A stretch of 64,000 nucleotides of DNA from Paramacrobiotus metropolitanus (Eukaryota; Tardigrada; Eutardigrada; Parachela; Macrobiotidae). The position numbers and the translations under genes were made by a program. Of the stretch, positions 3,001 through 20,025 are shown in pieces. Each line of letters begins with the position of its first letter. Positions within the stretch are counted from its first letter, which is position 1. Under the pieces are notes generated by a model, which searched no databases, was not told the origin of the DNA, and worked only from the letters and a program-made list of their open reading frames with translations. The stretch is from NCBI RefSeq assembly GCF_019649055.1, contig NW_026570341.1, forward strand, positions 186,001 to 250,000, read 5' to 3'.

Positions 3001-6000
3001 GCACATTCTAAACTGAATAATTATTAGTTACAGAAACGTTTCGATGTGTTTCTTAAGAAGTTGAAATTATTACTTAAATATCTGCGCAAATGCCTGAAAA
3101 TAATTAGATAGTCAAGGTAGAAGAAATTTAGTTCACACTAATAAAAAATTCAATTTCAAAATCAACATTCAATTTTAGCTCATCTCATTAAAAAAATAAG
3201 TTCAAAAATTCATGTAGGCCATTCATATGCTGCGGAAATTCGTATGAACTCAAACTACAGGTCTTCACATGCTAAAAACGCAGACTAAAAATTCACATAA
3301 ATCTGCCAACTAATTTTATAATTACATTATTGTATAACAGAACAACTGTACAATAAATTCGGGTTGTGTACTGACCGCCGTGCAGGGTGGTGGCCGAGTA
3401 GTTGAGCTTCTCCAGACCCTTGGCCAGCACGTCGGCGCCCTTCTTCTGGTTGACAAAGATGATGATCGGCGGCTCGAATTCCCCGCCATCCAGCACCTGC
3501 AGTCAATTCTTCTGTTAATCCCATTTATTTGTAATTAAAAGTCCCTATTATTGTTTCTCCTTGTTTACCTTACCCGCTGCAATTCATCTTTTTAGTAATA
3601 TTTCCAATTAATAATAACAAGAATAATGATAGTTTTTTATATTCACCTGCGTCTTTAGTACTGTTTTTAATTACTAATAATTACTATTATTATTTCTTCT
3701 AATTTATCTGCAGCAGTTATATTTCTTAGTAACATTTTTAATTGTTTAGTATTGACCATTTGACCTGAATTAAGCTGAGTTTCTACTCGTTTGCACCCCT
3801 CTTGCGAGGAAAAACACCCAATTTGCCATTATGGTATATCTATATCTAAAGAACATTCTGAACCATTCTGACCCAAAATTAACTGCAATTAAATTCTGAT
3901 TCAATAACAAATTAAATTCAAAATTAACTGCAATTCAACTGCGATTAAATTCCAAAATAGCTGCCAATAAATTCCAAGTTAATTTCGAATTACACTTAAA
4001 TTCAAAATTAACACAAATAAATTCCATATTAACTGCAATTAAATTCTAAATCAATTACAAAATTAAATTCAAAATTAACTGCAATTTAATTCCAAATCAA
4101 ATGCGATTAAATTCCAAAATAGCTGCAAATAAATTCCAAATTAATCACACTTAAATTCGAATTTAACACAAATAATTTCCACATAATTATGTATAAAAAT
4201 GACGTTTATAATATGCAGTTTATAAATACGTTTACCTTGAGTAGTTTGGTCTTCTTCTCCTGTTCAGAGCACATGAAGACCTGCTGCTCGACGCGGTCGA
4301 CCGGCTTGCCGACGGTGCCGATGTTGACGATGACGGGTCGCCGCAGGTAGGTGCGAGCCAGCCGCTCGACGGCGGGCGGCATGGTGGCGGTGAACATGAC
4401 TGTTTGGCGGTACTTGCTCTTGGTGCTGCTGCGCAGGTTGCTCATCAGCAGCGCCTCGTCCTCGGCCTCGTCCGTGTCCGGCTTCTGGTTGCTCACCGGC
4501 ATGTGGTCCAGGATCTTCTGCACGTCGCCCTCGAAACCCATGTCGATCATGCGGTCCGCTCTGATCAAATTAAAGCAGCCTGAGCATTTTTACAATTAAT
4601 TATAACTAATTTTTCTAGTCGATTATTTTAAGGAATTTTCAATGGATTTATTTTTATTATTATTTATTATTTTATTATTTAATGTGCTCCAGGATCTTCT
4701 GCACGTCCCCTTCGAAGCCCATATCGATCATGCGGTCCGCTCTGATCAAATTAAAACAGCCTGAGCATTTGTAAGTTAATTATAATTATTCAATCGAATC
4801 GATAATTTTATCGAATTTTTAATGGAATTATTTTTATATGGTTTCTCTTATTTCAGTATTTAATGTGCTCCAGGATCTGCTGCACGTCGCCCTCGAAACC
4901 CATGTCGATCATGCGGTCCGCTCTGGTCACATTAAAACAGGCTGAGAATCTTTACAATTAATTATATTTATTTAATCGAACCGATTACTTTACTGAATTT
5001 TTTATGGATTTATTTTATACATATTATATTTATTATTTCACTGCTAAATTTCTGGATCATCTGCACGTCGCCCTCGAAACCCATGTCGATCATGCGGTCC
5101 GCTCTGATCAAAATAAAAACACTGTACAATTTCTACAGTAATTATAAACTCCAATTTTTTACAGTAATCATTTTATCCAGTTTTTTTTATGGATCAATTT
5201 TATATTTTTTATTACTTCGCTGTTTCACTTCCAACTCACAATATTTTATTTTAGACCAAAAACACACAGTGAAATTAAAAAAAATCCCGTTAAAAACAAT
5301 TATTTTTATTATTATTTTTTTATTACTTTGTATTATATTCTTTACTTATTTGTTATTATCATTATCTATTACTTTTTTCTTACAAAATGCAACTGAGATG
5401 CAATTTAATCAGTTTTGGACTAAATAAATTCGAAGCAACTCAAGAGACAAAATTAAGAGAAACTGAATTTTTAAAATTCATTGTCCGAATAAGAATTTTC
5501 TTGTAGAACAAAGTAAGGATAGTTTCCGATGTACCGATTTCTTAATTTAATTATTAAAACTACATACTCATCGAGGACGACGTAGGAGCACTGGTTGAGC
5601 ACCAGATAGCGGTTCTCCAGGACGTCCAGCAGACGACCCGGCGTGGCGATGACGATCTCGCAGCCCTGACGCAGCTTCATGCCCTGGTCCTCGCGCGACA
5701 AACCTGCAGCGTTAAGAATTATTTAAGAATTATTTAAGAATTATTTAAGAATTATTCAAGAATTATTCAAGAATTATTCAAGAATAACTCTAGAATTGTT
5801 CAAGAATTTGTTCAAGAATTATTCAAGAATAACTCTAGAACTGTTCAAGAATTATTCAAGAACTATTTAAAGAATAACTCTAGAATTATTCAAGAATTAT
5901 TCAAGAACTATTCAAGAATTATTTAAGAATTATTTAAGAATTATTCAAGAATTATTCAAGAATTATTTAAGAATTATTTAAGAATTATTTAAGAATTATT

Positions 6001-18500: not shown

Positions 18501-20025
18501 ATCCAGCCGGACCAGACGACCACTACCATTTTACTTTTTATTCAAATTAATTTTTAATTCACTTTTTATTTACTTTTGAGTTTTGCTTTATTAAAAATTA
18601 ACGATACTCTCCGTAGCCATTAGCACTGTTGGCTTTAATTGTGAATATTCCCAAAACGCAAAGCCACTGCTCTACGATTTGCCCGTTATTGGCACTCACT
18701 TCAGCGAACATCCAGCCGGACCAGACGACCATGACGACGTTGTAGACCAGCATTAACCGGCGCAATTCACACGCCGGACGCTGCCGCATGATCCGCGGCC
18801 CGAGCCACACGAAGAGCAGGTAGCCGGCCGTGATGCCCAGCACCAGATCCATTTTCCCCATCAGCAACAGATCCCGCGAGCGCACATCTGCCCAGCACAG
18901 TGCTCTGCATTATGGCTCTTCACTATCACGAACGGCAGAATTTTTTGTATTTATTCTTATATACTTTTTCCAACCGTTTGGACAATAATTTTATGTTGTA
19001 ATATTTTTAATTTACAGTATATTTCTATTACATTATCACATATACAAAATAAAACAGTAATTCTGCGTAGTAGTAACAATAATTTTCATCTATAATTTAT
19101 AAATAAATTATGAGAATATTTATCCGATCCTCTGATACAGTTTTTCATTTTTAACCGAGCACATAAGGATTTCTTCTGGAAAAAATACGTCAGAAAAATC
19201 TAACTATGCCGTAAAAATTAGCGTAAATTAAAAAATAATTTATTAATTAATTAATATTATTTTAATTATTAAAAACTAATTTATTTAAATCTGCTGAAAT
19301 TTCACTGGGCTTTACGGCAATCTTTTCACTTTAAGACACTGCAGTGACGCGTAACCTAAACGCCTGAGCAGTCACTCTACTAAGAAACCAACACAACGGC
19401 ACAGCGTTCACGCAACGGAATCGGCTAACAACAAGCAAAATCAAATTTTCAATATGAGGTTTTCATAAGGTTCACTACGTAATTACCTAGACGTATCAGA
19501 TAAATTTTGGATGTATCTCAAGCCAGTTAAATTTTCATGGAATCTCCAACACAAATAAACAAACACCAATTACAATAATATGGGATATTTAAATTTATTC
19601 CGCGAATATTTTCTGATGATTTATTGTAAATCAACAAACAACAAAATTAAATGAAGTAAAAATATTTAACAAACTATATTAAAAAACTATAATATTAATT
19701 TACAAAGATAAATAAAAATAAATATAAATTGACTGAAACATAATATGTATTTATAATTATTTTATAATTTACGGAAATATTTTTCAACAGTTATTCCATT
19801 GCAATTAATTTTATTCTTTTGCTCATATTTCTCGATCTAAAACTACTGTGAAGAATAATTTAAAAATAAAAATTTTTATTTGCAACCGTTTCAGTTTTTA
19901 CAGCCCCGTCTGATTTGGAAACAATCTAATTTGAAGCCTGAAATGTGAAACCCTGGATATAACTCAGGTTCTGCGTTTTCATTAAACTTCGCCTTACCGC
20001 CGTTATCATACACTTTCTGCGCCAT
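15507..20025 (-). CDS. Very-long-chain fatty acid elongase (ELOVL family)
   Basis: Seven exons read leftward in phase: 19998-20025, 18700-18887, 17412-17525, 17209-17343, 16532-16568, 16341-16465 and 15507-15752. They give about 290 residues, normal for the family. The ELOVL hallmarks are YLLFVWLGP near the N-terminus, [30 protein letters not shown], the catalytic histidine box HVYHH, then [16 protein letters not shown] and [12 protein letters not shown]. These enzymes condense malonyl-CoA with an acyl-CoA in the ER membrane, the first step of two-carbon elongation, and hydrophobic segments between the motifs fit a multi-pass protein. I see no clear KKXX signal at the C-terminus (RPKAE). The start is the least certain part: an ATG lies at 20025, but the frame stays open upstream ([11 protein letters not shown]), so the true first exon may extend further. 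Assignment to one ELOVL subfamily is not attempted. Confidence 0.93.
15753..16340. other. ELOVL intron, no gene seen
   Basis: AT-rich intron. Repeated words (AAAATCACATAATAAATACGGACA, split at 16064-16090 and 16148-16175) suggest a short tandem duplication. Confidence 0.45.
16569..17208. other. ELOVL intron, no gene seen
   Basis: AT-rich intron between confidently placed exons. No repeat or reading frame of note. Confidence 0.45.
17526..18699. repeat. ELOVL intron with a copied exon edge
   Basis: The donor edge of exon 18700-18887 (plus-strand CTTCAGCGAACATCCAGCC then GGACCAGACGACCA) is repeated about 208 bp away at about 18490-18522. A neighbouring word, AGCCACTGYTCTACG, also occurs at 18450 and 18662. 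The copy keeps a GT at the exon-like border. The 122-codon plus-strand ORF at 17830-18198 is A-rich and is not supported as a gene. Confidence 0.7.
18888..19997. other. ELOVL first intron, no gene seen
   Basis: About 1.1 kb of AT-rich DNA separates the short first coding exon from exon 2. A base-balanced patch at 19315-19440 is unexplained. Confidence 0.45.

What the first reader, a model, noticed from the sequence alone, without database searches (positions are those of the whole stretch)
4500..18890. Recurrent splice-edge tandem duplication as a mode of intron growth
Four introns in three adjacent unrelated genes show tandem units of about 140-220 bp that begin at a splice junction and include exon bases. 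I know of no named element that does this. It could be replication slippage anchored at GC-rich exon edges beside AT-rich introns, or an introner-like process.
Basis: partly seen in the sequence, partly recalled or inferred. Interest (0 to 1): 0.75.

Follow-up and report, generated by a model that had tools for sequence, protein, structure and literature searches.

The report
Tandem duplications that clip exon edges
Introns in three neighbouring animal genes really do carry tandem copies of their own exon borders, but in the sequence sampled borders are hit no more often than the middle of introns, so this looks like ordinary short tandem duplication in non-coding DNA and not a new way of building introns.

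Summary
Four introns in DDX23/PRP28, RPS12 and ELOVL hold head-to-tail units of about 139-220 bp that include 23-58 bp of the adjoining exon. Five more edges carry copies: four in two DDX23 paralogues, one in another gene from a systematic sample. At score 44 or more, 9 of 172 tested edges carry a copy, against 0 of 172 decoys.

Anchoring at splice edges is not supported. In the focal loci edges are spanned 7 of 88 times (8.0%), intron interiors at a net 8.6%. In the sampled stretches it is 1 of 84 against 4.4%; in three pre-chosen genes 0 of 32 against 0%. The break lies 14-58 bp inside the exon, without a fixed position.

Best reading: a general tandem-duplication process, often of about 135-220 bp, acts across non-coding DNA, and some units overlap an exon edge by chance. 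They are tolerated because the true exon stays whole and the clipped copy lacks its second splice site (inferred). Left open: exon parts are short, and seem less diverged than the intron parts beside them.

The parts
4236..4560 (-). DDX23 exon whose acceptor edge (exon starts at 4560 on the minus strand, after GATCAG) is the source of the four-unit array
   Evidence: edge set by eye from the reading frame [12 protein letters not shown]; PDB sequence match to DDX23
4501..4681 (-). unit 1: true edge, about 60 bp exon plus intron tail
4682..4862 (-). unit 2: intronic copy; 50-bp exon part differs from the true exon at 4 sites, all synonymous by eye; AG kept
4863..5043 (-). unit 3: intronic copy; exon part 1/50 different, intron part 24/101; AG kept
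5044..5217 (-). unit 4: intronic copy; exon part 1/50 different, intron part 23/94 plus gaps; AG kept; best match of the end of the truncated tandem paralogue L001
7568..7804 (-). DDX23 exon with copied acceptor edge
7946..7986 (-). copy of the 7804 edge, 23 exon bp; acceptor CAG reads CCG
8093..8302 (-). two older, diverged copies of the same edge (GGCGCAG kept near 8110 and 8261)
13931..14031 (+). RPS12 donor edge (exon ends at 13939 by eye) and intron head, first unit
   Evidence: Pfam PF01248 on the protein
14144..14345 (+). second unit: copy of the RPS12 donor edge, GTAAGC kept
18700..18887 (-). ELOVL exon whose donor edge is copied
   Evidence: Pfam PF01151 on the following exons
18489..18522 (-). 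exact 34-bp copy of 18698-18731 (ELOVL donor edge) in the intron; donor GTGAGT reads GTACGC

Best explanation
Short tandem duplications, most often with spacing about 135-220 bp, arise across the non-coding DNA of this genome, unevenly from locus to locus. In the genes of this window they are dense enough that some units overlap an exon edge. Such a unit leaves the true exon intact and places a clipped copy of the edge inside the intron, so the intron grows by one unit per event and arrays form by repetition. Clipped copies are tolerated because they carry only 14-58 bp of exon and one of the two splice sites, so they make poor exons. Shown: the duplications, their spacing, the lack of an edge excess in the sample, the short exon parts. 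Inferred: the tolerance step and the molecular cause (replication slippage, unequal exchange or misprocessed nucleosome-sized lagging-strand fragments).
For: Edges spanned 7/88, 1/84, 0/32 (decoys 0 in each) against net interior rates 8.6%, 4.4%, 0%. Intron-only and intergenic duplications lie in the same loci with the same common spacing: 18 of 41 non-coding clusters at 135-220 bp in a search from 50 to 1500 bp. The L024 stretch holds both an edge array and a 169-bp intron-only array. Exon parts of 58, 22, 32, 25, 30, 40, 27, 23 and 14 bp show no fixed break. The edge triplicated in L001 shows only an intron-part repeat in the matching window intron (10949/11107).
Against: Exon parts are shorter than free placement predicts: 9 of 9 are 58 bp or less, against 14% of interior hits (about half of those interior hits are at decoy level). 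If only overlaps that shallow are allowed, my arithmetic expects about 4 edges where 9 were seen, though 8 of the 9 come from loci chosen because copies were seen. Many copies keep AG or GT, such as all four DDX23 units, and should compete in splicing. Exon parts look less diverged than their intron parts. Three pre-chosen genes have no local duplication at all, so the process is not uniform.
Confidence: 0.72

Rival explanations
1. Edge-anchored duplication: the step from GC-rich exon to AT-rich intron itself provokes slippage or fork stalling, so duplications start at edges.
For: All nine exon parts are short, 14-58 bp. True borders beat other introns as null in 14 of 210 and 12 of 208 cases, about 2 expected each. 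If only shallow overlaps are possible, about 4 edges are expected against 9 seen (my arithmetic).
Against: No excess of spanned edges over interiors in any of three sets; 0 of 32 edges in three pre-chosen genes; 8 of the 9 cases come from the focal loci, which were picked because copies were seen; no fixed break position.
Confidence: 0.15
2. Edge copies are kept because they work, as decoy splice sites or poison ends that tune expression, or are kept alike by gene conversion from the exon.
For: DDX23 copies 3 and 4 differ from the exon at 1 of 50 sites each while their intron parts differ at 24/101 and 23/94. ELOVL copy identical over 34 bp. Copies 3 and 4 share the codon GGT with the true exon, while copy 2, L001 and L002 have a codon ending in C. 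Exons of window and L001 are patchy: four-fold differences 0/24 and 0/27 in two exons, 12/48 in another.
Against: Four-fold sites in exons diverge less than introns (0.119 and 0.212 against 0.255 and 0.241), so GC-rich DNA may simply change more slowly. The copies were noticed because they are well kept. The acceptor AG is lost in L001 copies 2 and 3 and in the 7946 copy (by eye).
Confidence: 0.15
3. Introner-like or other mobile element insertion that carries exon edges.
For: Units recur in several introns of unrelated genes.
Against: The copies match their own edge. Genome searches with three of the regions return the locus itself, its paralogues, or one 72% match outside the edge. The tool scores only the best candidates, and the 7804, L001 and L024 units were not searched.
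Confidence: 0.02
4. Assembly error (collapsed or expanded repeats).
For: No independent assembly was available.
Against: DDX23 units differ at 17-26% of aligned intron sites, too much for mis-stacked reads; related copies exist at the separate loci L001 and L002.
Confidence: 0.02

Closest known systems
[quoted passage not shown] passages seen, part of the abstract among them)
   Same: A tandem duplication that spans an intron-exon boundary and so copies a splice edge within the gene.
   Different: There the copy became a new intron and inserted exon; here the copy lies inside an intron that is merely longer (inferred; no RNA data).
Rogers model with AGGT-bearing exon segment, and ATP2A1 (as described in passages of PMC4974935)
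   Same: Tandem duplication of exon sequence near a splice signal.
   Different: Here the unit is mostly intron, and for DDX23 the intron already exists at the matching place in the paralogues.
Internal gene duplications of Gao and Lynch 2009 (recalled; cited in passages of PMC4974935)
   Same: Internal tandem duplications that take in introns or their boundaries.
   Different: Here only one splice site and 14-58 bp of exon are taken.
Internal tandem repeats that change human paralogue structure (De Grassi and Ciccarelli 2009, PMC2812944; outline and headings only)
   Same: Repeat units within duplicated genes differ between paralogues.
   Different: Its headings speak of minisatellite expansion and changed proteins; here the copies lie outside the coding sequence as modelled.

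Membership tests
Ordinary local tandem duplication | Head-to-tail copies at the same locus, homologous along the unit | tested here: met
   in ELOVL only the 34 bp and about 45 bp of intron are still alike
Ordinary local tandem duplication | Placement indifferent to exon edges in frequency | tested here: met
   no excess in three sets; small numbers and a rough interior rate in AT-rich focal introns
Ordinary local tandem duplication | Exon overlap as deep as the unit length allows (expected of unselected placement, not strictly defining) | tested here: inconclusive
   9 of 9 exon parts are 58 bp or less, against 14% of interior hits; selection through splicing or a bias in breakpoints could each cause it
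[quoted passage not shown]
   DDX23 only: introns lie at matching places in the paralogues; RPS12, ELOVL and L024 not testable here
Introners | Near-identical units dispersed in unrelated genes | tested here: not met
   for three of the nine edges
Introners | Terminal repeats and target-site duplications | not tested
   no dispersed copies to compare
Exon duplication / mutually exclusive exons | Whole exon copied with both splice sites | tested here: not met
   one edge and 14-58 bp of exon
Exon duplication / mutually exclusive exons | Use of the copy in mRNA | not testable with these tools
   no RNA data held

The most novel reading that the evidence does not exclude
In this lineage a replication-linked process makes tandem duplications of nucleosome or Okazaki-fragment size (about 135-220 bp), it is a main source of intron growth, and it steadily seeds introns with spare splice edges whose exon parts are held similar to the exon by gene conversion or use.
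Probability: 0.15. Interest if true: 0.6.

Novelty: new member of a known kind. Interest (0 to 1): 0.32.

Why it matters
It shows a simple route by which introns lengthen and acquire spare splice sites without breaking the gene, and it warns that edge-specific duplication can be an impression created by conspicuous GC-rich exon pieces inside AT-rich introns. If the size preference and the slow change of exon parts hold genome-wide, the genome would be a good place to study how short tandem duplications form and how splicing ignores near-perfect decoys.

Tried and rejected
The first self-trained gene model collapsed into many tiny false exons and was discarded; a stricter one was used. It was not checked against transcripts, and its edges were a base or two off at 4560 and 13939. 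L003 was dropped before the counts, because its predicted intron lies in a coding tandem repeat (seen, which still includes it). Introns under 150 or over 4000 bp or beside an exon scoring under 8 were dropped, and window models were corrected by hand (two false exons removed, three RPS12 exons added). In one search, 40-bp tiles deeper in the same exons scored 28 or more in 15 of 1250 cases and borders in 9 of 208; 25-bp tiles in 27 of 2173 and borders in 6 of 210; the eight highest tiles listed in each run are all L003. Seven weaker edge rows (score 32-37) were not counted: decoys reach 30-33, though two of the seven (L010 2042 at 37, window 16465 at 36) lie above every decoy. L002 4190 (score 48) falls out at the threshold of 50 used. 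Introner, exon duplication and new-intron readings were set aside for the reasons in the membership table. Paper searches for splice-edge duplication as a named process: 25 of 354 papers listed; 15 of 267; none found; 10 of 18. I saw none in those listings, but most hits were not listed and only open papers are held.

Full report
What was checked. The window is G000:C121:186001-250000 in a 169.8-Mb genome of 533 contigs. The size fits the 170 Mbp reported for the tardigrade Paramacrobiotus metropolitanus (passage of PMC11191345), but the species was not tested. The three genes are DDX23/PRP28 on the minus strand (best PDB sequence match named DDX23), RPS12 on the plus strand (Pfam L7Ae/L30e/S12e family; the name RPS12 is my reading of the protein) and an ELOVL-type elongase on the minus strand (Pfam ELO).

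The observation. All four reported introns carry the copies. DDX23 has four units of 181 bp at 4501-5217, the true acceptor edge first. A second DDX23 acceptor edge at 7804 has one clear copy at 7946-7986 and two older ones near 8110 and 8261. RPS12's donor edge at 13939 is copied about 220 bp on. ELOVL's donor edge at 18700 is copied exactly over 34 bp at 18489-18522. The ELOVL duplication also covers some intron, since a shared motif (CACTG, two bases, CTACG) lies at 18453 and 18665, about the same distance apart.

More cases. DDX23 has two further loci: L001, a 5'-partial tandem copy just upstream whose match ends inside the edge unit, and L002 on another contig. They add edge copies at L001 6786 (three units), L001 2716, L002 4509 (one degraded copy about 520 bp away) and L002 4190. 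I took 24 further 10-kb stretches, one from every fourth contig from C4 to C96 at the same position; they are systematic, and from large contigs only. They gave one strong edge array, an acceptor edge at L024 3383 with further copies read at about 3534, 3674 and 3812, the first of which has lost the junction itself.

Is it more than chance? Exons were predicted with a home-made model, good to a few bases and not checked against transcripts. Of 172 edges of 86 introns (44 in window, L001 and L002; 42 in the sample; L003 dropped), 9 had a copy at score 44 or more with at least 8 exon bp, and 0 of 172 decoys did. Eight of the nine are in the focal loci.

Is it special to edges? That excess would follow from any local duplication that overlaps an edge. 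So for the same introns I asked how often an interior point is spanned by a local duplication, with reversed targets as decoys. At score 50: focal 308 hits and 129 decoys of 2090 points (net 8.6%) against edges 7 of 88; sample 78 hits and 8 decoys of 1599 (net 4.4%) against 1 of 84; three genes named beforehand as first-ranked Pfam hits (MCM, Rpb2, Nop; note) 0 of 419 against 0 of 32. Edge decoys were 0 in each set. An earlier run at score 44 gave a net 6.4% of 1746 points against 5.2% of edges. There is no edge excess. The decoy rate in the AT-rich focal introns is high, so the focal interior figure is rough.

What does differ at edges is depth. Uniform placement in a 180-bp unit would put about a third at 58 bp or less. 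Two of the nine cases (window 4558 and L002 4509) concern the same ancestral intron. A short exon part with one splice site would be a poor exon, so selection through splicing is a likely filter (inference; the minimum exon size of about 50 bases is recalled). A mutational preference for AT-rich DNA is a rival, weakened by duplications in non-coding stretches of 40-50% GC. If overlaps are limited to such depths, the expectation falls to about 4 of 172 (my arithmetic), against 9 seen in a set enriched by choice; the sampled set alone has 1 of 84.

Same process as elsewhere. Of 41 non-coding local duplication clusters, 18 have a spacing of 135-220 bp; the 41 include the edge cases and a few multiples of short repeats. 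Edge cases lie mostly in that range: 181, 139, 219, 209, 178, 158 and about 195 for L001 2716. L024 shows 321 between two copies that are two units apart, and the L002 4509 copy lies about 520 bp away. The three pre-chosen genes had no local duplication in 27 kb, so density varies much between loci.

Divergence. In the DDX23 array the 50-bp exon part of copies 3 and 4 differs from the true exon at 1 site each, copy 2 at 4 (all synonymous by eye), while intron parts differ from the true unit at 17-25% of aligned sites. Copies 3 and 4 share GGT with the true exon where copy 2, L001 and L002 have a codon ending in C, which hints at conversion, on one site. Four-fold sites between paralogues differ at 24 of 201 (L001) and 36 of 170 (L002), introns at 25.5% and 24.1% of aligned sites, so slower change of GC-rich DNA may explain part of it. 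I treat this as suggestive only.

Splice signals of the copies, by eye: all four DDX23 units keep AG; L024 copies 3 and 4 keep AG; the RPS12 and ELOVL copies keep GT; the 7946 copy and L001 copies 2 and 3 (6786 edge) have lost AG. How the true acceptor is chosen over three upstream look-alikes in DDX23 is not known.

Verdict. Real, recurrent, and a contribution to intron length, but best filed as ordinary local tandem duplication that clips exon edges. The finding is of modest interest; the shallow exon overlap and the size preference are the points worth a genome-wide test.

Noticed in passing
window 7217, 18453, 18665; L001 3439; L002 8180; L024 4477: Dispersed motif: GCCACTGNNCTACGT has 87 exact matches in the genome against 4 for the pattern read backwards; the looser form at these places lies in predicted introns. 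Nature unknown.
   Followed up: partly
window 27065-43497: Tandem segmental duplication of about 8.2 kb, 99.2% identical (27065-35283 and 35285-43497).
   Followed up: no
window about 235-2875: What looks like a DNA transposon remnant in a DDX23 intron: transposase-like reading frame between inverted CACACCAC-type ends; read by eye, not tested.
   Followed up: no
L001 1261-8015 and L002: DDX23 sequence occurs at three loci; L001 is a 5'-partial tandem copy whose match ends inside the edge unit.
   Followed up: partly
window 5568-5703 and 8514-8718 against L001: Two exons show 0 of 24 and 0 of 27 four-fold differences between paralogues while three others show 5 of 52, 12 of 48 and 7 of 50: patchy, as after gene conversion.
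   Followed up: partly
window 5712-6105: An 11-bp minisatellite of about 35 copies begins some 10 bp from a DDX23 acceptor and is shared with L001.
   Followed up: no
L024 1545-2229: A 169-bp, 3.9-copy intron-only array, about 92% alike, in the same stretch as the L024 edge array.
   Followed up: no
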